Assembly: GCA_903926075.1 (NCBI GenBank)
Contig: CAIYHQ010000065.1
Span: forward strand, 1 to 34,010
Direction of reading: 5' to 3'
DNA from: an uncultured Methanomicrobiales archaeon
Lineage (GTDB): Archaea; Halobacteriota; Methanomicrobia; Methanomicrobiales; Methanospirillaceae
DNA: 34,010 bases
Below, piece by piece: positions 4,168 to 34,010 of the stretch. Numbering within the stretch: the stretch's first letter is position 1; every line of letters begins with the position of its first letter. A program made the translations under genes and the position numbers. Below the pieces are notes generated by a model. The model saw only the letters and a program-made list of their open reading frames with translations. It searched no databases and was not told where the DNA came from.

Positions 4168-4641
4168 ATGAAAAATTTATTGATTCACGGACTTCTTGCA
4201 TTGTTAATTACCGGATTTTTAATTATGAGCGGATGTACAACAAATGCACCTTCCACGCAACCAGTAGGAACAGCAAATCAATTAAAAATTCCAAACCTAA
4301 CCGGGACATGGGATGTAGAAACCCATGGTGGTGTTATCCAAAAGTCAGCAGTTCCCGGGCAATATACTCATCACAAGGGCAGGTATGATACACTTAGCGC
4401 CCAGGCAGTGATAACCGATCAAAATGGCAGAGTTATGCACGGAACATTAAATGCATCACTTGGTGCCGAGGAAAGTTTTGTAGGAGTAATTGGAATGGAC
4501 AACAAAACGTTCTACTATGCCGATAATGACGGTATAATCGAAGGACAAATTGTCAATGATGATCTCATAAATATGGTATACCGTCATGTTACCGCAAATG
4601 ATACTGTAATAGCTGTAGGGACCTGGTCAAGGGTAAAATAG
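4168..4641 (+). CDS. lipoprotein, small beta-rich domain (copy 2), 157 aa
   Basis: This is the tandem paralogue of the gene at 3412, with the same length, the same lipobox (IMSGC, Cys at residue 23) and the same mature domain ending in GTWSRVK. An in-frame ATG lies five codons upstream at 4153, but 4168 gives the start shared with copy 1. Differences between copies are scattered and mostly conservative (for example YFYADYDG-type versus YYADNDG), with no frame damage, so both genes look maintained. The intergenic 3886-4152 contains a T-rich stretch just after copy 1 and the duplicated upstream region, and I see no other gene in it. Confidence 0.8.
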   Translation: MKNLLIHGLLALLITGFLIMSGCTTNAPSTQPVGTANQLKIPNLTGTWDVETHGGVIQKSAVPGQYTHHKGRYDTLSAQAVITDQNGRVMHGTLNASLGAEESFVGVIGMDNKTFYYADNDGIIEGQIVNDDLINMVYRHVTANDTVIAVGTWSRVK

Positions 4642-5009
4642 CCTTTTTGATTTCAGGTTTGCTAGTATGGTCACTTAACTTCCAGAAAATGTAAACTATC
4701 CCAATTTGTTTTTTTCCTGAGGAAAAATGTGACAATCAACTAATTCTTTGTAAATTTTTCAGGGGAAAAAACTTTTTCCCAGAGAAATAGTTCTATTTCA
4801 ATTCTCACAAAATCGACCCTCCAAAATATCGCACCCGAAAACAATTTGATGACAATCAGTCATTTTCTTTCCATCAAAATATTATTCAGGATGGGATTCG
4901 GGTTGCCTGATTATGTGTCTGAAAAAAATATTAATAAAAGTGAAGCAGAAGCCACAGACTGAATAGTAACAAATCATTTAACCTCCGTTTATCCCCTTAT
5001 CAATCGCCC
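4642..5009. other. non-coding region with two near-identical palindromes
   Basis: I see no convincing gene here. There are two perfect 8-bp-arm palindromes about 50 bp apart: TTTTTCCT-G-AGGAAAAA at 4711-4727 and GGGAAAAA-AC-TTTTTCCC at 4763-4780. They share an A-run/T-run and C/G design and could act as terminators or be ends of a small decayed element. A 23-codon ORF at 4891-4962 is too short to support. Confidence 0.5.
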
Positions 5010-5152
5010 GTAAAAACAGATTTTGCGTTCAAAAAGGTCTTTGAAGGAGAAAGCTCGAAAGATATCCTGCTTTCGTTCATCAATGCAGTCATAGACTTTG
5101 AAGGGCATCGTGTCGGGAGTCTTTAAGATCCTTCCCCAGTACCAGATTCCTC
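5010..5152 (+). pseudogene. relic 5' fragment of a Rpn-type nuclease gene
   Basis: These 143 bp match 5709-5850, the start of the intact nuclease gene downstream, at roughly 85-90 percent by eye with one single-base indel. The translated relic reads VKTDFAFKKVF and ILLSFINAVIDFEG, and then hits a TAA where the indel shifts the frame. There is no start codon and nothing of the remaining 230 residues. It is a dead, partial duplicate, and the direct repeat suggests local duplication followed by deletion. Confidence 0.85.
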
Positions 5153-5394
5153 GCATCATTCTCTTCTTCATATTGGTCTTTAAAATTTATCTCTTCTTTG
5201 AGTTTTATCTTGACTATGCTAAAGAATTCAGTGGCAAAATCCTTACCTCGTTCAGATATAAGTATAATGTGGTCTGATTCTAACTCAAAGAAGAGTTGTT
5301 TCCCTACCTTGAGCCCTAAACGATCCCTGATCTCTTTTGGGATAACTATCTGCCCCTCTTCACCGATTAAAGATCCACATGTTAATTCACTCAT
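5089..5394 (-). CDS. AbrB/SpoVT-type DNA-binding protein with an antisense-derived tail, 101 aa
   Basis: Residues 7-45 are a swapped-hairpin AbrB domain: GEEGQIVIPKEIRDRLGL, then KVGKQLFFELESDHIILI. Such domains bind DNA as dimers and act as transition-state regulators or as antitoxins. No toxin gene is adjacent. Residues after about 50 form a charged, probably helical region (IVKIKLKEEINF). The last 20 codons (5092-5151) are read exactly antisense to the nuclease relic at 5010-5152, so this C-terminus was probably acquired after that fragment arrived. The start at 5394 is the only ATG ahead of the AbrB domain. Whether it still regulates anything nearby is unknown. Confidence 0.75.
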   Translation of the reverse strand: MSELTCGSLIGEEGQIVIPKEIRDRLGLKVGKQLFFELESDHIILISERGKDFATEFFSIVKIKLKEEINFKDQYEEENDARNLVLGKDLKDSRHDALQSL

Positions 5395-5693
5395 GATTTA
5401 AAGTCGGTGTAAGATAAGAAGAAAATGGTTGCATCTCCTGAAAATAAATGCATAATTATCCCTTATACTCATTCTCCAATCCATACGCAGGTATTAAACT
5501 TACATTTGATAGAGCTTTCCGGTACTGGATCTGCAGTTCCACCCACTCCGTTATGGGCAGGGTTTATCATTTGTCATTTTTTTATTTGGTATTATTACAA
5601 TCACGGTATATAAAGCCATTACCAGCCACTCTCCTTTCCTCCGATAGTTAGAAGGATAATGAAATCTATTAATTATACCAAATCTGGATCACT
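5395..5693. other. intergenic region without a supported gene
   Basis: Two overlapping short plus-strand frames (5425-5651) can be read here, but neither has a ribosome binding site or a recognisable domain, and both are interrupted soon. The region lies between the divergent AbrB and nuclease genes, so it should hold their promoters. Confidence 0.5.
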
Positions 5694-19122: not shown

Positions 19123-19290
19123 TTTTAACAAATTAATTTAACAGATTTAACTTAGATTTATGGTAAGATAAATCCAAGGTTATTGGAGGATCTGTCACAG
19201 AATCTAACAATATAACTTAGAAAAGAATAAGGGCTTTCTTTCTGATAATAATTACATTAACAAATCCATACTTCATTCTCACTTGATAAT

Positions 19291-19518
19291 ATGACACAAA
19301 TATCTTCAATTATTAAAAAATTAACCCCTGATACTCGTATCAAAGGACCAATGTTCAATGAACCGGTTATAATTATCACTGTTACCGACCTTGGTGATTG
19401 TGCATCAAATCCGGTGATTCACATCATCAGGAATCCGGCATGCCTTGATTGGGTGCCGATAACACAAATTGCACATTATCATGTTGGTTCTGATGCCATT
19501 CTCGGAGCTACAAATTGA
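19291..19518 (+). CDS. short protein resembling a helicase N-terminus, 75 aa
   Basis: Residues 5-35 (IIKKLTPDTRIKGPMFNEPV, then IIITVTDLGDC) look like the first residues of large SNF2/DEAD-type helicases from defence loci. As I recall, these open with a pattern like L.PGT.I.GP.FPEPV.V......GD. After GDC the similarity ends, and the final 35 residues are of unknown kind (IRNPACLDWVPITQIAHYHVG). It may therefore be a severely truncated helicase gene or a genuine small protein. Its TGA overlaps the next ATG (TGATG), so it is translationally coupled to the AlbA_2 protein, which favours it being expressed. The start has no clear ribosome binding site. Confidence 0.5.
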   Translation: MTQISSIIKKLTPDTRIKGPMFNEPVIIITVTDLGDCASNPVIHIIRNPACLDWVPITQIAHYHVGSDAILGATN

Positions 19519-21200
19519 TGAACGAGGATCATATTCGTACAATTGCAGCAGCCGGGGAGGAGATTACAAGAGAGTTTAAATCTGAACTCTCCCGACTTCA
19601 GAATGATGATGAGATCGTTTCTGATATCGTTGCTATGGCGAATACCAATGGAGGAGTTCTCCTATTAGGGGTTGAGGATGACGGAAATATCACCGGTACT
19701 CCGAAACGTAAGGGAGCAACCATTGATCCCGTTAAGATTAGAGCGATGATCTACACAAGGACAGTTCCAGGAATAAATACCCGGGTTTCTGTCGTTCCTG
19801 TTGATGAGGTACAGATAGTAGCGATAGAAGTGGATGAACACCCTGAGATATGTTCAACCTCCCAGGGGAAGACACTCCATAGGATTACTGATACCCAGGG
19901 AAAACCTCAATCTGTACCATTCTACCCAAGGGATCATCTTTCACGAAGGATTCAGATTCAGTCACTTGATCTGACTGCTGAATTAATTCATGAACTTAGT
20001 TACGATGCATTTGATCCTGTTGCTTTTGCATGGATTCGTAGGATCATTAAGGTAAACAGAGGCGAACAGACACTCCTTGAACTGGGCGACGAAGAACTGG
20101 TAAAAGCCCTGAAACTTGTTGAGACCAAGGACGACGCACTAATCCCTAACTATGCGGGTCTCCTTCTCCTGGGGAAGGAAGATATAATTAATACATACCT
20201 TCCGACACATGAAGTGTTTTTTCAAATTATCGATGAACATGGCAATGTCAGGCTCAATGATGCATTTCGAGGTCCACTCTCACAAATTATTCCTGGAATC
20301 GAAGACCGGTTTCAAGCGAGGAATACTGAACGTGAAGTAATTGTCGGTCTCTTTCGGGTTCCTATCCCTGATTATTCAAAGGAAGGATTTCGCGAAGCAA
20401 TGATGAATTCCATCCTTCACCGTGATTATGCAAAGGATGGGTCGGTTTTTATTCAATGGCAGGCTGACCATTTACTTATGACAAATCCAGGTGGATTTCC
20501 TGAAGGAGTTACTCTTGATAACCTTCTTGTGCATGAGCCAAAACCAAGAAATCCAAGGCTTGCTGAAGTCTTCAGAAGAATTGGACTTGTGGAGACAACT
20601 GGTCGCGGTGTTGACAAGATATTCATGGGTCAGATAACGTATGGCCGACCAATCCCGGATTATTCCAGGACTGATGCTGATGCAGTACGTGTGGTCCTTC
20701 CTGGTGGAGAATCATCTCTTGAGTTTGCTGCCCTGGTGTTTGAACAGGACCGGAATGGTAAATCTTTGAAACTTGATGAATTATTAGTTCTGAATGCCCT
20801 TCATTCAGAACGACGGATCACAACAACCGAGGTAGGGCACTTGACTCAGAAAGGAGTGAGTTCAGCCCGGGCAACTCTTGAGCGACTTGTAGAACGGGGT
20901 CTTGTGCAAGGAGTGGGTGAGAAAAGTGCCAGGCATTACATTCTTTCACCTACTGTCTATCAAAGATTGAATGCATCATCAGAGTATGTCCGGACAAAAG
21001 GTTTTGATCGAATCCAACAAGAACAGATGGTTATTACCAGGCTCAAAGAACATGGAAAATTGACACGGTCAGATGTGATGGAATTGTGTACGATTACCGG
21101 ATCACAAACAACAAAAATGCTGAAAAAAATGACTGAAAAATATCCTACAATCCAACAAAGAGGGAAGGGTAAAGGAACTTACTATGTCTGGATAAACTAA
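19518..21200 (+). CDS. Schlafen AlbA_2 domain ATP-binding regulator, 560 aa
   Basis: The N-terminal domain is AlbA_2: EEITREFKSE with Glu19-Phe20-Lys21, then MANTNGGVLLLGVEDDG, the nucleic acid-binding and nuclease-like fold shared with Schlafen proteins. Around residues 290-380 is a GHKL-type ATPase domain (HATPase_c_4) with REAMMNSILHRDY, TNPGGFPEGV and RRIGLVETTGRGVDKIF. Two winged-helix segments end the protein (near RRITTTEVGHLTQKG and KLTRSDVMELCTITG). This layout is typical of ATP-dependent DNA-binding regulators often found near mobile or defence genes. I use the ATG at 19518, which overlaps the preceding stop; a TTG at 19515 is possible. The flanking sequence holds relics of defence-type genes. 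No catalytic mutation is evident. Confidence 0.87.
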   Translation: MNEDHIRTIAAAGEEITREFKSELSRLQNDDEIVSDIVAMANTNGGVLLLGVEDDGNITGTPKRKGATIDPVKIRAMIYTRTVPGINTRVSVVPVDEVQIVAIEVDEHPEICSTSQGKTLHRITDTQGKPQSVPFYPRDHLSRRIQIQSLDLTAELIHELSYDAFDPVAFAWIRRIIKVNRGEQTLLELGDEELVKALKLVETKDDALIPNYAGLLLLGKEDIINTYLPTHEVFFQIIDEHGNVRLNDAFRGPLSQIIPGIEDRFQARNTEREVIVGLFRVPIPDYSKEGFREAMMNSILHRDYAKDGSVFIQWQADHLLMTNPGGFPEGVTLDNLLVHEPKPRNPRLAEVFRRIGLVETTGRGVDKIFMGQITYGRPIPDYSRTDADAVRVVLPGGESSLEFAALVFEQDRNGKSLKLDELLVLNALHSERRITTTEVGHLTQKGVSSARATLERLVERGLVQGVGEKSARHYILSPTVYQRLNASSEYVRTKGFDRIQQEQMVITRLKEHGKLTRSDVMELCTITGSQTTKMLKKMTEKYPTIQQRGKGKGTYYVWIN

Positions 21201-21339
21201 TAATATGAACGGATTATATGCGGATATGAACTCCGCTCATATTCGATTGAATGATTATAAGCCGGATTGTATTTGGCACATATTTAAGAATAGAAATCCC
21301 AATTCAATCAATGACCTGGAAAACCAATGCAGGTTATAA

Positions 21340-21675
21340 TCGGAACAAGGGGATTTATCAGTCAATGAAATTCCAGGTGAATACCGGGTTACCTGTTCAT
21401 CAGGTGATATCTCCACAAGTATTCCCGTTACAGTTCAAAAGAAGGATAAAGTTAAACATGAACTCAAACCCGATGAAGAGTGGACTGGAGAACTTAGCCC
21501 AATTGACTGGATTACATTCTATAATAAAATAATAGAACAAGCAAGTGGTTTTGAAGAGAAAATAAAGATTGATCTTACTTTTCGGATAACTGATCCTTCA
21601 TCTATTGATCCAGAAAAACTTGAAAGCTTAAATCAGGCATTTAGAGAATTGAAACGGTTTAGAAGAGTGGAATGA
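21340..21675 (+). pseudogene. C-terminal relic resembling DUF499/COG1483 ATPases
   Basis: The frame is open from just after a TAA at 21337 to the TGA at 21673-21675 and has no usable start codon. The last 75 residues include EEWTGELSPIDWITFYNKII, IKIDLTFRI and LNQAFRELKRF. They match the way DUF499 (COG1483) ATPases end, with a W.G.....W..FY.K segment, a short beta strand and a final ALRELGL-like helix. The remaining roughly 900 residues of such a protein, including its Walker motifs, are absent. DUF499 proteins are core members of several archaeal and bacterial anti-phage gene clusters. This is therefore most likely the stump of a deleted defence gene. Family identity rests on recalled pattern only. 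Confidence 0.5.
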
Positions 21676-21755
21676 ATTTGAGGGCATGCGTCTTTGTTAA
21701 ACATGAAGATGGGACTGTTGTTTTATCTGAAACCAGATTTCGCTTAATGAAATAA
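21672..21755 (+). CDS. 27-residue ORF coupled to the DUF499-like relic
   Basis: An ATG overlapping the relic's stop (ATGA) opens MNLRACVFVKHEDG and closes at TAA 21753-21755, directly before a T-rich terminator. The overlap suggests it was once the start of the next gene in an operon, now cut short. It has no recognisable domain. Confidence 0.3.
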   Translation: MNLRACVFVKHEDGTVVLSETRFRLMK

Positions 21756-22027: not shown

Positions 22028-25000
22028 ATGGATGGAAGTAAAAGGTACACGAATAAACGATTAGATCCGGATAAGATTATAATAATAGTGCTAATCTGTT
22101 CCTTTCTTTTTACCCCAGTTGTTGTTGCATCAGACGACCTTGCTTCAGGTTCTGATTTAATGTATATTCCAGAGGGCATAGTGACACCGGGTTTCACATA
22201 TTCAATATCTCATCCTATTGGTACATCTGAATTGCCAATAGAGACCCAGACCTTAATACAACCTTCAAATACACCAATACCTGAAATTCCAACAATCGCT
22301 ACAACACAACCGCCTGTAACCGTTGAAAATACCCCATATATCACTCCAACTGAAACTATTGTCAATACACCTACTATCGAACCTACCATTGAACCTCCTT
22401 ATGAGTTAAGGGGGTCTTCGTCTGAATTTAACTTAAGTACACCTACACAGGAATATGAATCATTTTCAATTCCAACATTAAATGAATCTGAAAATTTAGC
22501 AAACCCTTTTTCAGGTAGTTCAGGATCACCCCTTGTATCTGATAACGAAACCCGACCGGCATTGTATCTGGCTTCGCCTTCTCCAAATGCGACTGAATCA
22601 GATTCTATTGGCTCTTCTCTTCCAACTCTGTCATTGGATAATCCAGATAATATCAGTTCATATTCATCATCTCCAATCTCTGAAGAACTCATGTATGGCC
22701 TCCCGGACCCCTGGCTCAACACGAGCAACTGGCTGGGTGCTGATGGTTCGCATTATTGGGAAATAACCCAACCTGGAATATATGACTTTGATATTGATTC
22801 TGTTGGCAACATTTTCACGACACTCAGCCTTTTTGCCATTAATATTCTTACTTCAGATGTTGTAGTCCATGGAAATAATGCAACAATAAATGGAGCATCT
22901 GGTGCGGGTTCAGTAGGAATTTTTGCAAACCAAAGTACCAATATTTATATAGATTCATTTATCGTCCAGGACAAGGATTTTGGTGTCCTCTTTAACAATA
23001 TTGGTTATAATACTTCGATGCTTGTCCCAAACAAAATTGAAAATGTCGTAGCCGATCTGAACAACAATGGAATTTATGTTAAAAACTCGAATAATGTGAC
23101 AGTCAGCAGCTCTTCTGCCACAAATAACCAGAATGCAGGAATTACTCTTTACAATACCTCGTATAGCACAGTTTCAGGAAACCTGAACATAGTTAATAAC
23201 AGCATCGGTATCCAGTCAGTTTCATCGGATTTCAACACTATAACCGGAAACAATATCCAGAACAGCACTGGGACAGGCATTGTATTCACTGATTCTAGAA
23301 ATTCTACATTATCCAATACAAATGTCCTTTCAAGCCTCCAAAACGGTGTAACAATAACAAACGGCGTTAATATATCGCTCTCGCAAAACTTGATTGCAGA
23401 TAATACCCTTGCCGGGGTTGCAATAAGCGGGTCTGAAAAGACAAATATTTCAGGTAACCAGATTAAGAGGAACCTTGGAAACGGAATTTCACAGAGCCTC
23501 GGTGGTAATAGTAGTCTCTTTTCAAACACAGTTTCCAATAACCAGGGTAATGGAATTTCTTTATCCGGGTCCCATGGTGACAATATTACATCTAATACCA
23601 TAGAGAACAATGGTGCAAATGGGATTCTGCTATCCGGAATTACACAGTCGATCCTCTCAGGTAATCAGGTAAACTATAATGGTGGAGCAGGGATAAGCCT
23701 CGCTTCTACAACTCTCTCGAACCTGCTTTCGAATTACGCAACGCATAACTCAGGAAATGGTATTGTATTGTCAGATTCCTCCTCAAATAACCTCACAGGC
23801 AACACTGTTACTAGTAACCTGGTAGACGGAATCGATATTTCAAATTCAAGTAGCAATAATCTTTTTAACAATATAGCAGCCTCAAATTCATTCATCGGGA
23901 TACATGTCCGGGATGGGAGTACAGGGAATAACCTCACAGGCAATCAAATTTCTCAAAATAGCCAGTTTGGAGTCCAGATATTAAATGCCCCTTATAATAC
24001 GCTCCATTCAAACAATATGTCCAATAACTACCTTAATTTCAATGTAAAAGGGGTAAATGACTCGGATTACTATCAATATATCACAATGGATAACCTTGTA
24101 GGCGGCTCACCGCTTGCATATCTTCTTGACAGCGTTAATACTGAAATCAATGCATCATTAAATCCCCCTAAAACTATCTTTTGTATCAATTGTACAGACC
24201 TGCTTGTAAAGGATATTAACCTCTCTGGAAACGCTTATGGAATTTATCTTAGAAATTCCAGAAATTCCAATATCAATAATGTCACGGCCACAGGAAATCA
24301 GAACGGGATATACCTTACTTCGTCTTCAAATATTACGATTCAAAATAGTTTAGGTATAAATAACCTGCAGAATGGGATTTATCTGGATAATTCAAGTGGA
24401 AATAATTTGGGTTATTCCAATGCTTCCGGTAATGGCATAAATGGTTTTACTCTAACAAACTCCAATAATAATAACCTGAGTTTTTCCACTGCTTCCAGTA
24501 ATGGTATCAGTGGTTTTTCACTTGTAAACTCAAGCAACAACCTGATAAAGAACTCAACCAGTTCGAATAATCAATATGGCATCTATCTTTCGAATTCAAC
24601 AGACAATAGTCTTTCGGGCAATTTAGCAGAGTATAACCTCCAGCATGGGATGTATATCACACAAGGTAGTGTAAATACTACCCTTACTGATAATACCCTT
24701 TACAAAAACGCATATTATGGCATGTTTCTCGAAGCCTCTGGAAATGCAACTCTTGAGAGAAATAATTTCACGGAAAATCGTTTTAACTTTAAGATTGGCG
24801 GTCTGAACGACTCTGATTACTATCACACGATTGATACGTCAAATACGGTTGATGGAAGGCCGATTTGGTACTTTAAAAATGTGAGTGACACATTACTCGA
24901 TTCAACATCTAATGCAAGTACAGTCTATTGTATCAATTGCGTTAATTTTACAGCGAGGGATCTAAACCTTACACCTAATGGCTATGGGATTTATCTTAGA

Positions 25001-28000
25001 AATACGGTCAACTCTCTTATCGACAATGTCTCTGCAACATTCAACGAAGACGGAATCTCCCTATATAATTCTTCATTCAACATGCTCACAAATAATTCCG
25101 CAGAATCGAACCTTTTCAGCGGGATTTACCTTAACAACATGAGTGATACCAATACACTCCAGGGTAATTACGCAGAGAATAACACTGTTGGAGTCAATCT
25201 GACCGGCTCAAGTTATAACCTTCTCAATAACAACACTGCCAACGGAAATTATCACGGTTTTGTAATCCAGTCTGGAAGTAACTTTAACAATGTTACAAAT
25301 AACACTGCTGAAGGAAATTCGTATTACGGAATTCACATATCAGGTTCACAATGGAACAATCTTACCAACAACACAATGAACTCCAATAAGTACAATTTCC
25401 GTATTTCCGGGAGTTCAGATGAAGACTTCATGCAGTACATCGATGATATTTCAAACCTTGTGGATGGAAAACCGGTCTATTATTTCAGAAATAACAATGA
25501 TACAACACTTGACGAGACAGACAATGTCGGTACCGCTTATTGCATCAGGTGCAATAATTTTACAGCCCAGAATCTGACCTTGACCCATAATGGTTATGGA
25601 GTATATATACGGAACAACACTAATGCACTTGTAACAAACAACACGGCTTTTCTTAATGAGAATGGAATACTTCTTTATAATGTCAGGGACAGTGAAGTAT
25701 CGCTAAACAATGCAAGCTATAACAATGATAACGCTGGAAATGGAATATCATTGTTTGCAGGAAGCACCAACAATACCATAAGAGATAATATTGCAAATTT
25801 CAATCAGAACGTCGGAATTCTACTCTCCGATTCCGGGCTCAACAGAATATTTAACAGTACCGCTAACCTGAATGGCCATGATGGGTTAGAGCTTTCAAGT
25901 TCGGACACAAACACAATAACAAACATAACTGCAACCCATAATGGAGAAGACGGGGTCCACCTCATCAGTTCATCAGATAATTCGATTTACAATGTCAATG
26001 CAAGCTGGAACACATATAACGGCTTTGATTTACAGGGTTCATTAAGAAATACAATAAACGACAGTATTGCAAATAATAATTCCAGGAACGGAGCATATCT
26101 CCAGTCTGGAAGTAATGGGAACGTTATCAGGGAAGACTCATTTAGAGGGAATGGGGCAAATGGGATTGCAGTAGAGAGTGCAAATGACAATATTGTCACG
26201 AATGACACTGTAGCGTATAATAAAAATTCCGGAATATCACTATCAAGTGCCCGCAATAATACGGTAACAACAAATGAAATCTTCAGAAACACTGAATCCG
26301 GTGTCTATGCCTCCTCATCCACGAACAATCATATTTTTGTGAACAATATCACGAATAACTCGGGAGCCGGAGTATACCTGAGGTCTTCATCCGGAAATGA
26401 CATCCTCTCCAACAATATCTCGTCAAATCTCGCGAACGGGGTCAGATTTGAATTTTCAAATACTAACAACCTCTCGCTTAACAATATAACCTATAACCAG
26501 CAAAACGGGGTTTATTTCAACAATGCAAATTCAAATACTATCACTAATAATGAAGCGACAAATAACACCAAGAGCGGAATTTTTATCAATGGTTCATCCA
26601 CTAACGTCCTTACCGATAACACAGCTTCATTTAATAAAAATTCAGGAATTTTCCTGACAAATTCATCTTCAAACAGGGTCTTTTCGAATGATGCCAACAA
26701 CAATACCGCAAGCGGAATATCGCTTTTAAATGTAGTAAATGAATCAATATTCCTGAATTCGATTTCAGATAATGCTTTTGCAGGGATTAATGCTTATAAT
26801 GCAAGTGCTTCAAACTTCAGCAGTAATGTTGCAACAGATAATAAACTGTATGGACTCCTTATCTCAAAATCCAGTACCGACACGGTCTATAACAACACTG
26901 GTGGAAACACTACAGACCTTGTTAATGGAATAGGTATCGGAATAGTCGATTCAACAAGTATCACAGCATCCCATAATTATGCAAACAATAATAGCGGCAC
27001 TGGGATCCTGGTAAGCGGTGGTTCAAAGAACCAGGTCCTTTCAAACGATGTAACTGATAATATAAATTCCGGGATTAACCTGTCAAGTACTACAGATAAC
27101 ACAGTAAGAGGCAATGATGCCACCAACAACAGTGCGTATGGAATTTTCCTGAATTCTGCAAACCGCAACACTGTAAGTGATAATCAGGCATCAAATATGA
27201 CAGAAGGTGTTGGTGTTGGTGTCCTTAATTCTCAATCCAATACATTTACCAACAATACTGCAATCAACAATCTTATAGGAATTCTTGTCACTGGAGGAAG
27301 TTCAAACAATCTGAATTCCAACAATGCCAGTTTCAATTCTCAGGAAGGTGTTCTTATCACCTCTTCAACAGGCAATAAACTTTCCTCAAATGTTGTAATA
27401 AACAACTCCGCAAGTGGAATTGAAGTCTACCAGTCTTCAGGGAATGTGATTAATGGTACCATTGCAAAAAACAACACAGAACAGGGCATTTTCCTCTCGG
27501 GTGGGAGCGGAAATACCATTGGTGCTGGAAATACAATCAGGGATAATGGTCTTAATGGGATTCTTATAGATAACTCAAGCAGCAACCTGCTTGCTGATAT
27601 AACCACAATCCGGAATAATAGCTTAAGTGGAATTAATATTGAGGGTGCAGGGTCTAGTGGAAATATTCTCTCAAATGTACTTGGCGTAGAGTATAATGGG
27701 TTGAATGGAGTCTACTTAGGTAATTCAAGTGGAAACAGCATTAATGGTACACAGAGTGCTTATAACACGTTAAATGGGATTCAACTCTTCAATTCAAACG
27801 GAAACACAATAGGGACTGGAACAAACACCAGTTTCAATGAAGAAAACGGTATTTTAATCCTTAATTCATCAGGTAATATTGTTGACGGGCTTGGGGCTGC
27901 ATCCAATAACTTACTAAGTGGCGTAAACATTGAAAACTCGAACAATATTTTGGTTTTAAATTCGAATGGAATTACGAAGAACAATGAAAACGGGATCTAT

Positions 28001-31000
28001 GTAGGTAACTCTACTGGAACTGTAGTAAATAGCACATCTGTATATTATAACCAGCAAAACGGAATTGAATTCTTTAATACATCAACGAGCACCATCGGAA
28101 CTGGAACTAATTCGAGCTTCAACAAAGAAAACGGTATCCTTCTGTTAAATTCATCAGGAGATTCAGTTAATGGAATTATTGCAGCAGCAAACAACACGTT
28201 CAACGGGATTAATATTGAAAACTCAAATAATATTTTAGTATTTAACTCTAGTAGAATTACCGGTAACAGTGAGAACGGGGTTTACGTAGGTAACTCGACT
28301 GGAACCAAGGTCAATAGCACAAATGCATATAGCAACCTGCAAAATGGTATTGAATTCTTTAATACATCCACAAGTACCATTGGAACAGGAACAAATGCAA
28401 GCTACAATAAAGAAAACGGTATCCTCCTGTTAAATTCTTCAGGAGTTTCAGTTAATGGAATTGTATCAGCAGCAAACAACACGGTCAACGGGATTAATGT
28501 TGAAAACTCAAATAATATTCTAGTATTTAACTCAAGTGGAATTTCCGGGAACAGTGAGAACGGGGTCTATGTAGGTAACTCTACTGGAACCACTATCAAT
28601 AGCACATCGGTATATAGCAACCTACAAAACGGTATTGAATTCTTCAATACATCCGCAAGTACCATCGGAACCGGGACAAACGCAAGCTACAACACTGGAA
28701 GCGGGATTTTATTTGAGAATTCAGCAGGAAATAACATTATAAATATTTCCTGGGCAAGATACAATGGACAGAACGGGATAACTTTTGAAAATTCAAGCAA
28801 TAACCAGATAACAAATGCAGCCGGCATCTGGAACAACTCTGGAAACGGTATTTATATTGAAAATTCAATGGGGGATGTTATCAATGGCAGTAATACTTCA
28901 TATAATACGAAAAATGGTATAGAATTATTTAATGTATCTGGTAGTGCAATTGGTTCCGGGACTAATTCAAGTTATAATCTTCAAAGTGGGGTTCTTGTCC
29001 TGAGCTCAGATAACACTACAATCGCAGATGTATCATCAGTAAGAAATAACCAGCAGAACGGAATTTATATTGAAAATTCGGAGAATACAACTATAAAAAA
29101 CGCAAATAATATACGCAATAATACAAATAACGGTGTCCTTGTCAGCAACTCCTCATTTGCAACTATCAGTAACACAAATGCTTCTTACAACTCTGGGAAC
29201 GGGTTCTCTCTCTTCAACTCAACTGATGTATCTCTATCTCAGAATATTGCAGGTTACAACACACTTTCAGGTATATACCTTGATAATGCAGATAACAACA
29301 CACTGAGCGGAAACAATGCCTCTTTCAATAAAAAGAACGGTTTTGAAGTTTTTGAATCAGATAATGTAAGTTTGACAGGCAATTTCGCTACGAATAACAC
29401 CCAGAACGGATTTTATCTTAACAGCTCTGAAAACAGCAGCCTTTCCCAGAACACTGCCGCAAAAAATACCTGGAACGGAATTTCACTATTTAATTCTACA
29501 GGAATAACAGTCAGCTCAAATAATGCAAGTTATAACAGCCAGAGTGGGATCCTTCTTAACAATTCAGATAGCAATTCGCTCTCACTTAATACAATCAGCT
29601 TCAATAAAGACTCAGGAGTCAGAATAAACGAATCCGACAACAATAACCTTACAGGGAATATTGCAGCCAATAATACGCTTTATGGATATTCACTCGTCGA
29701 CTCCCAGGGAAACAACCTGACTTCAAATATTGCAAAGTACACAACCGACTTATCCGTAGGTACCGGGTTTTCACTTGTAAATTCAAGTAACAACATACTA
29801 CTCAATGATACGTCACTACATAACGCGTATTACGGACTTAACATTAGTGGGTCCAGCGGTACAACCATGAGAGACGATAATCTCTCGGGAAATAAATTTA
29901 ATTTCAAGATAGAGGGCACAAAAGATTCAGACTTTTATCAGACAATTGACACGAGCAACCTTGTTGATGGAAAGAAAATTTATTATTTCAATGACACAGG
30001 TAATGTTACCCTTGATTCGAGTTCCAATGCCGGAACTGTGTATGTTATCAATGGTAACAACTTCACACTAAAAGACCTGAATTTACCACAAAATGGATAT
30101 GGTGCGTATTTCAGAAATACAAATGACTCAACGATAGAGAATACCAAAGCAATCTATAACGAGGTCAATGGAATATGGTTGCAGAACTCAAACAATAACA
30201 CGGTTACAACAAGCAATACCAGTTTTAATTACGGAAATGGAATATTTGTATCTGACTCTGCAGGAAATAACATAACCTATAACTATGTCCTCTCCAACCA
30301 GAAAAACGGTATTTACATTAATGATTCTGTAGGAAGAGGTCTTGTATGTAACATTGTTGCAAACAATATTGCAAATGGTATCCTGCTTGATAACTCTACG
30401 AGTTATACTCTTGAATGTAACCAGGTATCCAATAATGGCGGAAACGGTATATCACTCATCAATTCTCCTGAAAACTATCTGAACAACAACACTGCAAGAA
30501 ACAATACCAATGGTTTCTACCTGTTCCAGTCAAATGATACACACATCGAGAATAGTACTTCAACTTTCAACCGGGCGAGCGGTACTGAGATTGCATATTC
30601 CCACAATATTACATTATACAACGATACACTATCATCGAACCACGATTATGGCATTTATCTTAACCATTCGTCTTTAATCAATATAATCAGTAACACAATA
30701 ACAAATAATTCGATAAATGGCATCGAACTAGGAAATTCCACTGATGTCACAATATCCGGCAGCAATTTAAGTTACAACGATGGTTACGGTATAGAATTCA
30801 AGGATTCATCCGGACTTAATTTCACCCATAACGATGCTTCTCACAACACCCTTTGCGGAATAATGCTCAGAAATGTCACACAGATGGATGTAAGTGACAA
30901 TACATTTAACTACAATGATCTATCCGGGATTTGCCTGGTTAACTCATATGAGAATCACATTGCCTCAAATAATGCCTCATACAACGAAAACAACGGAATA

Positions 31001-34000
31001 GTCTTCACAAATTCAAGCAACAATGATGTAATCAATAATAATGCTGCGAATAATGTTAAATATGGGATGTATCTGAATGAATCGAGCAACGCAAACAATA
31101 TTTCAGGAGATATTTTTGCCTCCAATGGAATATCCGGTATAAAAATTGTTGATTCCAACGCAAATAATCTCACGAATGTAACGGCAGTCAATAATATTGA
31201 CTACGGCATCAGTTTGTTCAATACAAGTTATACCGATATAACTGCAAGCAACGCTTCGAAAAACCGTGTCGGAATTGAACTATTAAATACCTCTAATACT
31301 GGCCTTTACAACAATACTGCCAATGATAACTCGTATTATGGTATAAACATCAGTGAATCGGTCCATTCAGTGATGAGAAACAATTCCATGTCTGGTAACC
31401 TCTATAATTTCAAGGTTGACGGTTCGAATAACGCATCTTTCTATCATGATATTGACAGCAGTAACACAGTAAATGGCAACCTCATCTATTACTTCACGAA
31501 CTCAACTAACGTTACTCTTGGAGCAGACTCAAATGCAGGCACAATATATTGCATCAACTGCACAAATGCTGACATTCGGGATGTAAACCTTACTCATAAC
31601 GGCTATGGCCTCTATTTACGTGGCACAAACAACTCTGTTTCTGAAAATGTAACGGCCGGATATAATGAAATTAATGGATTTTCACTGTATTACTCAAGAA
31701 ATGACACAGTTGATAACAGTACGTCTTTTTCAAACGGACAGAACGGATATGTACTCTCACACTCTTCCCAGATATCACTCTTTAATGATACTGCAGCGGG
31801 TAATGGTGGTTATGGTGTCCTTCTTAATGGTTCAAGCAGTGGAAATTCAATATTGAATACGACCGCTGAATATAACCAAAAGTCTGGATTTGGCCTGTTT
31901 GATGATTTAGATAATAATCTTACCGGAAATACTGCATTGGGCAATTTTGGCTCAGGTTTTGAACTTTCAAAATCGACACAGGACCAGCTTCTCGATAATA
32001 TTGTCACTAATAACAGTAAGTCTGGAATCTGGCTCTTCAATACGTCCCTCTCTACGCTTATTTCTAACAATGCCTCTTCCAATAAGGGGTATGGAGTGTT
32101 ATTGAACGGATCAAGCACGAATAACACTCTTACCGGCAATTCAGCGGGTTACAATGAAATGTCTGGTTTCGGACTATTGAATGTCACACGTAATAACCTG
32201 TCAGGCAATACAGCATTCTGGAACGGAGGTTCCGGTTTTGAATTATTAAATGTTACAAACTCAAACCTCTCTCTAAATACAGCATATGAGAATACAGGCA
32301 GTGGAATTTCTCTGCTTAATTCAACAGGAGACCTTCTCCAGTTAAATAATGCCTCATATAACCACGAGAATGGAATAGTCCTTACAGGTTCAGGAAACAA
32401 TAATGTCTCGTACAATACAGCCTGTTACAACTGGCAGAATGGAATTCTTTTAAACAGATCCAGCAATGACAACACCGTTGCGAATAACAATATCTGTTCG
32501 AATTCTGGTTCAGGAATAGGAATTTTTGATTCTTTACGAACGAATGTTACTTCGAATACTGCAACCGGAAACACGGGTCCAGGATTTAAACTATCAAATG
32601 CATCAAATACAAATCTAACCGGAAACTCAGCCTTGGACAATACCGGAGACGGGTTCTTAATCCTCAATTCAACTCAAGATCGTCTCTTAAACAACATTGC
32701 AACAAATAATACCCAGTCTGGAATACGCCTCTTTAATACAAGCTCAAGCACCCTGATATCGAATAATGCTTCGCTGAATGACGGTTACGGTATCCTGCTG
32801 AATGGATCAAGCAATTTGAACAATCTGACTAACAATATCGCAGACTATAATGAAAAGTCAGGTTTTGGTTTATTAGATATATCAAGTACAAATCTTACGA
32901 ACAACACTGCTATTGGAAATTCCGGATCTGGGTTCATCCTGTCTAATGTGACAAATACAAATCCTGTCGGAAACACAGCCCTTTCAAACAATGCAAGTGG
33001 GATTTGGGTCATCAATTCCAGCAGTATGAAACTAACTTCAAACAATGCTTCATATAACCATGAGGACGGAATTGTCCTGACCAATTCGGGTTCAAACAAC
33101 CTTACTGGTAACACTGCATGTTACAATTGGGAAAATGGAATTCTTTTAAACCGATCCAGTAATGATAACCTGCTCGTGAATAATAACGTTTGTCAAAATG
33201 GAGGTTCAGGTATTGGCATTTTTGACTCCATTCGTGATAATCTCACATCAAATACTGCAACCGGGAACTCAGGCTCTGGCTTCACACTTTCAAACACGAC
33301 AAATACAAACCTGACACTTAATACAGCATCGAATAATACTGCAAACGGTTACACAATATTCAACTCAACACAAGACCGCTTTATTAGCAATAATGCAGTT
33401 AACAACACTCAATCAGGATTCTTACTCACAAACTCAAGTAACAACAACCTACTCTGGAACAATGCTTCGTATAACCACGAATATGGGTTCCTGCTGAATA
33501 GTTCAAGCAATGCAAATACTCTCGGAAACGACACAGCTAATTATAATACTAAATCTGGTTTCGGAATCTTTGACGTTATTGGGACAAACCTCACGAATGA
33601 CACAGCATTAGGAAACAACGGCTCTGGGTTTATTCTTTCGAATGCTACGAACTCCAATCTCACGGGTAATAATGCATTACAAAACGGTGCTAGTGGAATA
33701 ACCTTACTGAATTCAACGAGCAACCTACTGCAACTGAACAATGCTTCATATAACCATGAAAACGGAATTGTGCTTACTAATTCCAGTTTGAACAACCTCA
33801 CAAGAAATACTGCCTGTTACAACTGGCAGAATGGAATATTACTTAACAGCTCAAGCAATGGGGATTTACTTTCAAATAATAATGCCTGTCAGAATGGTGG
33901 CTCTGGAATCGGTGTATATGATTCGATAAATAATAACCTTACATCGAACACTGCAACTGGAAATACAGGTTCAGGCTTTACTCTTTCTAACACGACAAAT

Positions 34001-34010
34001 ACAAACCTGA
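22028..34010 (+). CDS. giant secreted NosD/CASH-type beta-helix protein, partial (3' end outside window)
   Basis: One frame stays open for 3,994 codons to the last base, where it still reads GSGFTLSNTTNTNL, so the true protein is longer. Residues 17-35 are an export signal (IIIIVLICSFLFTPVVVAS). A Pro/Thr/Ser-rich stalk runs to about residue 220. From about residue 240 onward come well over 150 coils of roughly 23 residues with the pattern NNT....NGI.L.NSS.N.L..N.A, the CASH/NosD right-handed parallel beta-helix signature. Asn-Gly-Ile turns and Asn ladders recur every coil, and Asn-x-Ser/Thr N-glycosylation sites are extremely dense. Cysteines are rare and cluster in CINC or CYNW positions. 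It is probably an extracellular adhesin, sheath or S-layer-associated fibre. The frame was checked at several points and at the end. Internal duplications are listed separately. No anchor is visible because the C-terminus is missing. Confidence 0.93.
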   Translation, partial: MDGSKRYTNKRLDPDKIIIIVLICSFLFTPVVVASDDLASGSDLMYIPEGIVTPGFTYSISHPIGTSELPIETQTLIQPSNTPIPEIPTIATTQPPVTVENTPYITPTETIVNTPTIEPTIEPPYELRGSSSEFNLSTPTQEYESFSIPTLNESENLANPFSGSSGSPLVSDNETRPALYLASPSPNATESDSIGSSLPTLSLDNPDNISSYSSSPISEELMYGLPDPWLNTSNWLGADGSHYWEITQPGIYDFDIDSVGNIFTTLSLFAINILTSDVVVHGNNATINGASGAGSVGIFANQSTNIYIDSFIVQDKDFGVLFNNIGYNTSMLVPNKIENVVADLNNNGIYVKNSNNVTVSSSSATNNQNAGITLYNTSYSTVSGNLNIVNNSIGIQSVSSDFNTITGNNIQNSTGTGIVFTDSRNSTLSNTNVLSSLQNGVTITNGVNISLSQNLIADNTLAGVAISGSEKTNISGNQIKRNLGNGISQSLGGNSSLFSNTVSNNQGNGISLSGSHGDNITSNTIENNGANGILLSGITQSILSGNQVNYNGGAGISLASTTLSNLLSNYATHNSGNGIVLSDSSSNNLTGNTVTSNLVDGIDISNSSSNNLFNNIAASNSFIGIHVRDGSTGNNLTGNQISQNSQFGVQILNAPYNTLHSNNMSNNYLNFNVKGVNDSDYYQYITMDNLVGGSPLAYLLDSVNTEINASLNPPKTIFCINCTDLLVKDINLSGNAYGIYLRNSRNSNINNVTATGNQNGIYLTSSSNITIQNSLGINNLQNGIYLDNSSGNNLGYSNASGNGINGFTLTNSNNNNLSFSTASSNGISGFSLVNSSNNLIKNSTSSNNQYGIYLSNSTDNSLSGNLAEYNLQHGMYITQGSVNTTLTDNTLYKNAYYGMFLEASGNATLERNNFTENRFNFKIGGLNDSDYYHTIDTSNTVDGRPIWYFKNVSDTLLDSTSNASTVYCINCVNFTARDLNLTPNGYGIYLRNTVNSLIDNVSATFNEDGISLYNSSFNMLTNNSAESNLFSGIYLNNMSDTNTLQGNYAENNTVGVNLTGSSYNLLNNNTANGNYHGFVIQSGSNFNNVTNNTAEGNSYYGIHISGSQWNNLTNNTMNSNKYNFRISGSSDEDFMQYIDDISNLVDGKPVYYFRNNNDTTLDETDNVGTAYCIRCNNFTAQNLTLTHNGYGVYIRNNTNALVTNNTAFLNENGILLYNVRDSEVSLNNASYNNDNAGNGISLFAGSTNNTIRDNIANFNQNVGILLSDSGLNRIFNSTANLNGHDGLELSSSDTNTITNITATHNGEDGVHLISSSDNSIYNVNASWNTYNGFDLQGSLRNTINDSIANNNSRNGAYLQSGSNGNVIREDSFRGNGANGIAVESANDNIVTNDTVAYNKNSGISLSSARNNTVTTNEIFRNTESGVYASSSTNNHIFVNNITNNSGAGVYLRSSSGNDILSNNISSNLANGVRFEFSNTNNLSLNNITYNQQNGVYFNNANSNTITNNEATNNTKSGIFINGSSTNVLTDNTASFNKNSGIFLTNSSSNRVFSNDANNNTASGISLLNVVNESIFLNSISDNAFAGINAYNASASNFSSNVATDNKLYGLLISKSSTDTVYNNTGGNTTDLVNGIGIGIVDSTSITASHNYANNNSGTGILVSGGSKNQVLSNDVTDNINSGINLSSTTDNTVRGNDATNNSAYGIFLNSANRNTVSDNQASNMTEGVGVGVLNSQSNTFTNNTAINNLIGILVTGGSSNNLNSNNASFNSQEGVLITSSTGNKLSSNVVINNSASGIEVYQSSGNVINGTIAKNNTEQGIFLSGGSGNTIGAGNTIRDNGLNGILIDNSSSNLLADITTIRNNSLSGINIEGAGSSGNILSNVLGVEYNGLNGVYLGNSSGNSINGTQSAYNTLNGIQLFNSNGNTIGTGTNTSFNEENGILILNSSGNIVDGLGAASNNLLSGVNIENSNNILVLNSNGITKNNENGIYVGNSTGTVVNSTSVYYNQQNGIEFFNTSTSTIGTGTNSSFNKENGILLLNSSGDSVNGIIAAANNTFNGINIENSNNILVFNSSRITGNSENGVYVGNSTGTKVNSTNAYSNLQNGIEFFNTSTSTIGTGTNASYNKENGILLLNSSGVSVNGIVSAANNTVNGINVENSNNILVFNSSGISGNSENGVYVGNSTGTTINSTSVYSNLQNGIEFFNTSASTIGTGTNASYNTGSGILFENSAGNNIINISWARYNGQNGITFENSSNNQITNAAGIWNNSGNGIYIENSMGDVINGSNTSYNTKNGIELFNVSGSAIGSGTNSSYNLQSGVLVLSSDNTTIADVSSVRNNQQNGIYIENSENTTIKNANNIRNNTNNGVLVSNSSFATISNTNASYNSGNGFSLFNSTDVSLSQNIAGYNTLSGIYLDNADNNTLSGNNASFNKKNGFEVFESDNVSLTGNFATNNTQNGFYLNSSENSSLSQNTAAKNTWNGISLFNSTGITVSSNNASYNSQSGILLNNSDSNSLSLNTISFNKDSGVRINESDNNNLTGNIAANNTLYGYSLVDSQGNNLTSNIAKYTTDLSVGTGFSLVNSSNNILLNDTSLHNAYYGLNISGSSGTTMRDDNLSGNKFNFKIEGTKDSDFYQTIDTSNLVDGKKIYYFNDTGNVTLDSSSNAGTVYVINGNNFTLKDLNLPQNGYGAYFRNTNDSTIENTKAIYNEVNGIWLQNSNNNTVTTSNTSFNYGNGIFVSDSAGNNITYNYVLSNQKNGIYINDSVGRGLVCNIVANNIANGILLDNSTSYTLECNQVSNNGGNGISLINSPENYLNNNTARNNTNGFYLFQSNDTHIENSTSTFNRASGTEIAYSHNITLYNDTLSSNHDYGIYLNHSSLINIISNTITNNSINGIELGNSTDVTISGSNLSYNDGYGIEFKDSSGLNFTHNDASHNTLCGIMLRNVTQMDVSDNTFNYNDLSGICLVNSYENHIASNNASYNENNGIVFTNSSNNDVINNNAANNVKYGMYLNESSNANNISGDIFASNGISGIKIVDSNANNLTNVTAVNNIDYGISLFNTSYTDITASNASKNRVGIELLNTSNTGLYNNTANDNSYYGINISESVHSVMRNNSMSGNLYNFKVDGSNNASFYHDIDSSNTVNGNLIYYFTNSTNVTLGADSNAGTIYCINCTNADIRDVNLTHNGYGLYLRGTNNSVSENVTAGYNEINGFSLYYSRNDTVDNSTSFSNGQNGYVLSHSSQISLFNDTAAGNGGYGVLLNGSSSGNSILNTTAEYNQKSGFGLFDDLDNNLTGNTALGNFGSGFELSKSTQDQLLDNIVTNNSKSGIWLFNTSLSTLISNNASSNKGYGVLLNGSSTNNTLTGNSAGYNEMSGFGLLNVTRNNLSGNTAFWNGGSGFELLNVTNSNLSLNTAYENTGSGISLLNSTGDLLQLNNASYNHENGIVLTGSGNNNVSYNTACYNWQNGILLNRSSNDNTVANNNICSNSGSGIGIFDSLRTNVTSNTATGNTGPGFKLSNASNTNLTGNSALDNTGDGFLILNSTQDRLLNNIATNNTQSGIRLFNTSSSTLISNNASLNDGYGILLNGSSNLNNLTNNIADYNEKSGFGLLDISSTNLTNNTAIGNSGSGFILSNVTNTNPVGNTALSNNASGIWVINSSSMKLTSNNASYNHEDGIVLTNSGSNNLTGNTACYNWENGILLNRSSNDNLLVNNNVCQNGGSGIGIFDSIRDNLTSNTATGNSGSGFTLSNTTNTNLTLNTASNNTANGYTIFNSTQDRFISNNAVNNTQSGFLLTNSSNNNLLWNNASYNHEYGFLLNSSSNANTLGNDTANYNTKSGFGIFDVIGTNLTNDTALGNNGSGFILSNATNSNLTGNNALQNGASGITLLNSTSNLLQLNNASYNHENGIVLTNSSLNNLTRNTACYNWQNGILLNSSSNGDLLSNNNACQNGGSGIGVYDSINNNLTSNTATGNTGSGFTLSNTTNTNL
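24030..31626 (+). repeat. five copies of a ~75-residue non-coil module within the giant protein
   Basis: At about 24030-24260, 24779-25006, 25389-25620, 29892-30120 and 31401-31626 the coil pattern is broken by a conserved block. It reads roughly NFKI.G..DSDYY..IDTSN.VDGKPIYYF, then TLD..SNAGTVYCINC.NFT..DLNLT.NGYGIYLRN. Three copies keep CINC and one has CIRC; the 29892 copy has VING in its place. Related blocks are a known part of archaeal NosD-type proteins. They divide the helix into segments and each is followed by a fresh run of coils. Confidence 0.8.
27676..29100 (+). repeat. 285-bp (95-residue) tandem repeat array, about five copies
   Basis: The phrase encoding TIGTGTN.S.N occurs at 27806, 28091, 28376, 28661 and 28946, exactly 285 bp apart each time. 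Other words keep the same spacing, such as GTAGGTAACTC near 28000 and GAAAATTC at 28787 and 29072. One unit equals four beta-helix coils. The middle three copies are most alike, and the outer ones have drifted. Confidence 0.9.
31727..34010 (+). repeat. 696-bp (232-residue) tandem super-repeat, three clear copies plus one diverged
   Basis: The codons for QNGI/ENGI in the phrase CYNWQNGILL lie at 32435, 33131 and 33827, spaced 696 bp, and an eroded match is at 31739. A second anchor (GGTTT.GG before a FGL/FGI strand) is at 32165, 32861 and 33557, again 696 bp apart. One unit equals about ten coils and contains one Cys pair region. The array runs off the end of the window. Confidence 0.88.

What the first reader, a model, noticed from the sequence alone, without database searches (positions are those of the whole stretch)
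19291..21755. Apparent remains of a defence locus around an intact AlbA_2 regulator
A helicase-like N-terminal stump, an intact Schlafen-AlbA_2/GHKL protein, a DUF499-like C-terminal stump and a tiny coupled ORF share one strand and end at a strong T-rich terminator. The pattern suggests that a larger system (DUF499 ATPase plus helicase type) lost its big genes while the AlbA_2 gene was kept. That makes the AlbA_2 protein, with its 75-residue partner, a candidate two-gene system of its own.
Basis: inference. Interest (0 to 1): 0.6.

Follow-up and report, generated by a model that had tools for sequence, protein, structure and literature searches.

The report
Lone Schlafen-type gene in Hma ruins
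In a methane-producing archaeon, a three-gene antivirus system has been cut down by two deletions to scraps around one intact gene for a Schlafen-like protein, and the same lone gene, in one group clearly kept by natural selection, is found in similar ruins in related archaea.

Summary
The locus is real and most of the inference holds. The large system was Hma (HmaA helicase, HmaB DUF1156 methylase, HmaC DUF499 ATPase), also called a Type-1 BREX-related system. One deletion (3.2 kb) fused the first 36 and last 39 codons of hmaA in frame: this is the 75-aa ORF, so not just an N-terminal stump. Another joined the region behind AlbA_2 to the end of hmaC, now a pseudogene. AlbA_2 is intact (Schlafen AlbA_2, GHKL, winged helices; Schlafen-13 triad conserved).

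The pattern recurs: of 14 close Methanomicrobiales homologues (window included) none lies in an intact Hma locus, nine follow a clear hmaA tail, with at least three different junctions. In three Methanoregula genomes sharing one scar, AlbA_2 is under purifying selection (pn/ps about 0.1) but the helicase stub is not (1.1-1.8; Fisher p about 5e-4 and 3e-4). AlbA_2 is thus a selected solo gene there, and the stub is no protein partner.

The protein family and its link to Hma/BREX are published; selected persistence as a solo gene with exchanged C-terminal halves seems undescribed. Its function (RNase effector or regulator) is inferred.

The parts
19217..19290 (+). retained upstream (promoter/leader) region of hmaA
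   Evidence: DNA homology to L028 begins at 19217, upstream of the hmaA start (71% over 183 columns)
19291..19398 (+). first 36 codons of hmaA (SNF2/NOV_C helicase)
   Evidence: 78% identical to codons 1-36 of L028 hmaA
19398..19399 (+). deletion junction 1: 3201 bp (1067 codons) of hmaA missing, frame kept
   Evidence: L028 positions 1683|4885 adjoin here
19399..19518 (+). last 39 codons and stop of hmaA; the stop TGA overlaps the ATG of the AlbA_2 gene (TGATG)
   Evidence: 72-77% identical to the hmaA C-terminus
19518..21200 (+). intact AlbA_2 (Schlafen) - GHKL ATPase - winged-helix protein, 560 aa
   Evidence: Pfam PF04326, PF13749, PF22168 above cut-off; DIP2311 fold; triad E14/E19/D54 invariant in 17 homologues
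21212..21283 (+). native spacer behind the AlbA_2 gene
   Evidence: 68-69% identical to the spacer behind AlbA_2 in G101 and G109
21284..21288 (+). deletion junction 2: hmaB, any other slot gene and about 840 codons of hmaC missing
   Evidence: spacer homology ends at 21283 and hmaC homology begins at 21288
21288..21675 (+). hmaC (DUF499) 3' end, pseudogene without start codon
   Evidence: 70% DNA identity to L028 over 400 columns; 61-66% protein identity over 110 residues
21756..21790 (+). T-rich run, possible transcription terminator
   Evidence: read from the sequence; not tested

Best explanation
Shown: the locus is a decayed Hma (Type-1 DUF499 BREX-related) defence operon, with AlbA_2 directly behind hmaA and hmaC last. 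Two deletions took the catalytic body of hmaA and everything from behind the AlbA_2 gene to near the end of hmaC. The operon's upstream region and the AlbA_2 gene with its overlapping start remain. Shown in relatives: the same kind of remnant arose separately in other Methanomicrobiales, and in Methanoregula the AlbA_2 gene is held by purifying selection after the loss while the helicase stub is not. Inferred: the AlbA_2 protein is a self-contained antiviral effector. Its Schlafen domain (E14/E19/D54) would cut tRNA or other RNA and stop translation in infected cells, while the GHKL ATPase and winged helices sense infection or hold the nuclease off. With sensor and effector in one chain it can work without the Hma core that it once backed up. 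The stub survives because it lies between the old promoter and the AlbA_2 start, where it may help translational coupling.
For: Stub equals both ends of hmaA. hmaC tail and second junction. PADLOC identifies HmaA, HmaB, HmaC in intact relatives. AlbA_2 within Hma loci in L086 and L089. Nine of 14 close homologues have an hmaA tail upstream; best score of 210 null sequences 8.0 bits against 26.7 or more. AlbA_2 pn/ps 0.09-0.10 against stub 1.1-1.8. DIP2311 and Schlafen 13 fold matches, conserved triad. Published link of Schlafen-kinase-wHTH proteins with BREX/BR cores in at least 1017 taxa, proposed as suicide RNases (PMC12839542).
Against: No RNase or antiviral activity of this subfamily was tested here. 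The triad alone does not prove activity: hSLFN5-N and mSLFN1 keep the two glutamates yet did not cleave the tRNAs tested (PMC5862951). The winged helices fit a regulator as well. For the window itself the deletion may be recent, so intactness proves little. Two of 14 copies are broken. The selection test uses three related genomes and 30 stub codons.
Confidence: 0.55

Rival explanations
1. The AlbA_2-GHKL-wHTH protein is a transcription regulator of the Hma operon that binds the retained upstream region. It survives as an autoregulated regulator, perhaps acting on other genes, with no nuclease role.
For: Winged helices (Pfam HTH hits), Pfam's name 'Transcriptional regulator DIP2311-like', and strong conservation of the leader in front of it: 87-98% at -150 to -100.
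Against: A regulator of a lost operon has no evident reason to persist or to move to new sites. The catalytic triad of the Schlafen domain is invariant in 17 diverse homologues. Exchange of the C-terminal part behind a constant head fits a sensor-effector better.
Confidence: 0.25
2. Neutral decay: the AlbA_2 gene in the window is simply the part not yet lost, and intact copies in other ruins are recent losses too.
For: In the window, the hmaA and hmaC remnants still look little decayed. Two other solo copies are broken (G109 stop, G190 frameshift).
Against: In Methanoregula genomes sharing one scar, the AlbA_2 genes differ at 14-30% of synonymous sites yet have pn/ps of about 0.1, while the stub beside them has 1.1-1.8.
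Confidence: 0.14
3. Two-gene system: the 75-aa ORF is a real partner of AlbA_2.
For: The ORF is open, in frame and overlaps the AlbA_2 start (TGATG); tails of the same helicase lie upstream of AlbA_2 in other genomes.
Against: It is the two ends of hmaA. Other stubs differ in length and frame or are missing, and the Methanoregula stub has pn/ps 1.1-1.8.
Confidence: 0.03
4. Assembly error: an intact Hma locus was collapsed in this draft genome.
For: The genome is a 134-contig draft and no reads could be inspected.
Against: The assembly is 97% complete and no other contig holds the missing parts (the only other piece is an unrelated, 50%-identical DUF1156 stub on C9). The hmaC remnant is out of frame and startless. 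Similar scars occur in other assemblies.
Confidence: 0.03

Closest known systems
Hma system (PADLOC, PMC8565338) = Type-1 DUF499-centred BREX-related system (PMC12839542)
   Same: The remnants are its hmaA ends and hmaC end; AlbA_2 lies in the place it has in L089
   Different: All three core genes are destroyed or gone; not a working member
Schlafen RNase fused to a minimal histidine kinase and wHTH, accessory of BREX/BR systems (PMC12839542); DIP2311 (PDB 3LMM)
   Same: Same three-part protein, same genomic association, same fold (E=3e-32)
   Different: Here and in relatives it stands alone, without any core gene
Schlafen 13 N-domain (PDB 5YD0)
   Same: AlbA_2 fold match (E=5e-6) and aligned carboxylate triad
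   Different: Only a short first part aligns; the GHKL and wHTH parts are outside the match

Membership tests
Hma / Type-1 BR system | complete HmaA helicase, HmaB methylase and HmaC ATPase in one locus | tested here: not met
   only the hmaA ends and hmaC end remain; no hmaB in the locus
Hma / Type-1 BR system | remnants derive from Hma genes | tested here: met
   the intact counterparts are HmaA, HmaB, HmaC by PADLOC
Schlafen-AlbA_2 / GHKL / wHTH proteins (DIP2311-like) | AlbA_2 domain, GHKL domain and C-terminal winged helices | tested here: met
   PF04326, PF13749, PF22168 above cut-off; model matches 3LMM
Schlafen-AlbA_2 / GHKL / wHTH proteins (DIP2311-like) | Schlafen catalytic carboxylate triad | tested here: met
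   E14, E19, D54 align with rSLFN13 E205, E210, D248 and are invariant in 17 homologues
Schlafen-AlbA_2 / GHKL / wHTH proteins (DIP2311-like) | RNase and antiviral activity | not testable with these tools
   needs biochemistry and phage challenge
two-gene system of AlbA_2 with a small partner | recurrence of the small gene next to AlbA_2 with protein-level constraint | tested here: not met
   stubs differ between lineages or are absent; Methanoregula stub pn/ps 1.1-1.8

The most novel reading that the evidence does not exclude
Schlafen-AlbA_2-GHKL-wHTH genes are a free-standing antiviral effector class in archaea. They arise repeatedly when Hma operons lose their core, keep the operon promoter, move between genomic sites, and exchange sensor halves behind a constant nuclease head.
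Probability: 0.3. Interest if true: 0.6.

Novelty: new variant of a known kind. Interest (0 to 1): 0.42.

Why it matters
It offers a natural deletion series showing which part of a multi-gene defence operon can live alone. If the solo protein protects cells, the proposed 'backup effector' of BREX-related systems is an independent defence gene with sensor and effector in one chain, testable with one gene. It also warns that short ORFs beside defence genes can be in-frame deletion scars rather than partners.

Tried and rejected
Direct profile searches of the two stumps: no hit in Pfam, PADLOC or NCBIfam; they were identified only by comparison with whole genomes. Partner-gene idea for the 75-aa ORF: rejected. 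First genome-contig scan with the single AlbA_2 protein: nothing; repeated with an alignment. Plasmids hold only distant AlbA_2 proteins (25-27%) and helicase C-termini; the phage search (AlbA_2 only) gave fragments. A helicase tail upstream of the bacterial homologues: only L089 is clear; L092 (6.0 bits) lies within the null range, as do the 12-codon traces in G101/G109 (0.8-1.6 bits), which rest on reading plus, in G101, the hmaB remnant. pn/ps of the window's own stub and hmaC tail: uninformative because most divergence predates the deletion. The 167-aa neighbour gene family near several loci turned out to be multicopy and absent from this genome. A homologue with an internal stop was left out of the alignment.

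Full report
What is there. On the + strand, 19291-19518 is a 75-codon ORF, 19518-21200 an intact 560-codon gene, and 21340-21675 an open frame without a start codon. None of the short pieces hits Pfam, PADLOC or NCBIfam. Against 199 genomes of the class, the 75-aa ORF matches both ends of one 1142-aa helicase: residues 1-38 and 36-74 hit places 3.2 kb apart in the same gene in G115 and G177. DNA alignment puts the junction at 19398|19399, equal to positions 1683|4885 of L028, so 3201 bp (1067 codons) are missing and the frame is kept. The C-terminal piece matches residues 859-972 of a 972-aa DUF499 protein; homology begins upstream at 21288, out of frame with the rest.

What the system was. 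In G115 (L028) the order is helicase, DUF1156 methylase, a DUF4062 protein, DUF499 ATPase. PADLOC calls the three core proteins HmaA, HmaB and HmaC with E=1.7e-181, 3e-126 and 1.4e-126. Hma was proposed in PMC8565338 and is called a Type-1 DUF499-centred BREX-related system in PMC12839542. Other relatives carry different slot genes: SIR2-like in G073, TIR-like in G189, an OLD-like ATPase with a TOPRIM-like gene in G177 (these slot-gene names are my reading of the sequences, not profile hits).

Where AlbA_2 belongs. In L089 (Competibacteraceae) the helicase C-terminus, AlbA_2 gene and methylase N-terminus follow directly; in L086 (Falkowbacteria) AlbA_2 lies between complete methylase and DUF499 genes. 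Relatives also sit beside other restriction genes (type III in L096, type IIG in L097, a type I methylase some 5 kb away in L092). PMC12839542 reports Schlafen-kinase-wHTH proteins closely linked to BREX/BR cores in at least 1017 taxa and proposes them as backup suicide effectors.

The second deletion. The spacer at 21212-21283 is homologous to the sequence behind AlbA_2 in G101 and G109, and hmaC homology starts at 21288. A deletion joining these removed hmaB, any further slot gene and about 840 codons of hmaC. No other contig of this 97%-complete assembly holds the missing parts.

Recurrence. A search of the 232 held genomes of the order finds 14 close AlbA_2 genes in 13 genomes, the window's included. 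None lies in an intact Hma locus as far as the contigs reach. Nine have a clear hmaA tail directly upstream: the window, G198, G135 (two copies), G106, G190, G049, G073, G209 (26.7-58.2 bits; best of 210 null sequences 8.0). G101 and G109 show what reads as the last 12 codons of hmaA, but at null-level score; in G101 the first 78 codons of hmaB lie downstream, which supports a relic there. G137, G017 and G145 show none. Junctions differ: in Methanoregula (named) the hmaA leader is joined to its last 30 codons or so; in Methanoculleus, N-terminal and C-terminal pieces are in different frames. The Methanoregula stub is 70-89% identical to a Methanoregula helicase and only 41-52% to the window stub, while the window stub is 74-79% identical to the G115/G177 helicase. 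The AlbA_2 tree puts the window clade and the Methanoregula/Methanoculleus/Methanocalculus clade apart. The losses are therefore at least two independent events and probably three or four.

Selection. G198, G135a and G106 share one scar, so their divergence followed the deletion or a spread of the deleted form. Their AlbA_2 genes show pn/ps 0.09-0.10. The helicase stub shows 1.09 and 1.81 in the two informative pairs; Fisher tests of nonsynonymous against synonymous differences give p=5e-4 and 3e-4 (the two pairs share a genome and are not independent). Intact hmaA tails show 11 synonymous and no nonsynonymous differences between G115 and G177. The AlbA_2 protein is kept; the stub is not kept as a protein. 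The -150 to -100 leader is 87-98% identical among five Methanoregula loci while sequence further out is mostly much less alike, so the unit seems to sit at several sites. Identity holds from the leader to about AlbA_2 codon 73 and then drops to about 60% between two types; G017 and G145 are about 97% identical to about codon 365 and then about 60-70%. This looks like exchange of the C-terminal part by recombination.

The protein. AlphaFold (17 sequences, mean pLDDT 84, pTM 0.62) matches DIP2311 over the chain (E=3e-32, TM about 0.5) and the Schlafen 13 N-domain over the first part (E=5e-6). E14, E19 and D54 align with E205, E210 and D248 of rat SLFN13 (the chain index is offset by 13, my count), whose mutation diminishes nuclease activity, and are invariant in 17 homologues. 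Fold and triad are compatible with an RNase effector with a built-in sensor; the activity itself is inference. PMC12839542 cites a preprint on phage defence by bacterial Schlafens (bioRxiv 2025.07.24.666596), which I could not read.

Limits. For the window alone the deletion may be recent, and intactness of AlbA_2 there proves little; the claim of function rests on its relatives. Two of the 14 copies are broken. The selection test uses 30 codons and three related genomes. The literature library is partial, so 'undescribed' means not found in my searches.

Noticed in passing
own genome G000:C9 = L118:6556-6783 (-) and 4621-5628 (-): A lone 75-aa ORF resembling the HmaB (DUF1156) N-terminus (50%) is followed on the same strand by a 335-aa ORF like the GHKL half of AlbA_2 proteins (31%): a possible second relic in the same genome.
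   Followed up: partly
L119, L120, L121, L122, L123, L124, L125, L126, L036, L067: Lone N-terminal stubs of DUF1156 methylases (about 35-80 codons) recur in Methanomicrobiales genomes, often behind a helicase or AlbA_2 gene.
   Followed up: partly
L036:8202-10630: In G001 an hmaA tail of about 110 codons is fused to an unrelated N-terminal sequence and an hmaB head lies 1.8 kb away, with two genes on the opposite strand (one PIN-like by eye) between: a relic without AlbA_2.
   Followed up: partly
L032:15034-15537 (-), L069:10509-11012 (+), L070:7430-7933 (-), L077:7753-8256 (-): A 167-aa protein family starting MADFVQ, with no Pfam match, has up to 16 matches per genome in relatives (none in this genome) and often lies beside Hma or AlbA_2 loci.
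   Followed up: partly
L068:8166-9845 (-) and L077:8583-10264 (+): Two solo AlbA_2 copies are broken: one in-frame TAG in G109 and a frameshift near codon 100 in G190.
   Followed up: yes
window about 22030-34010: No + strand ORF of 100 aa or more is listed here because one frame opening with a signal-peptide-like, Thr/Pro-rich start seems to run off the contig end; it may be a very large surface protein (the extent was not checked).
   Followed up: no
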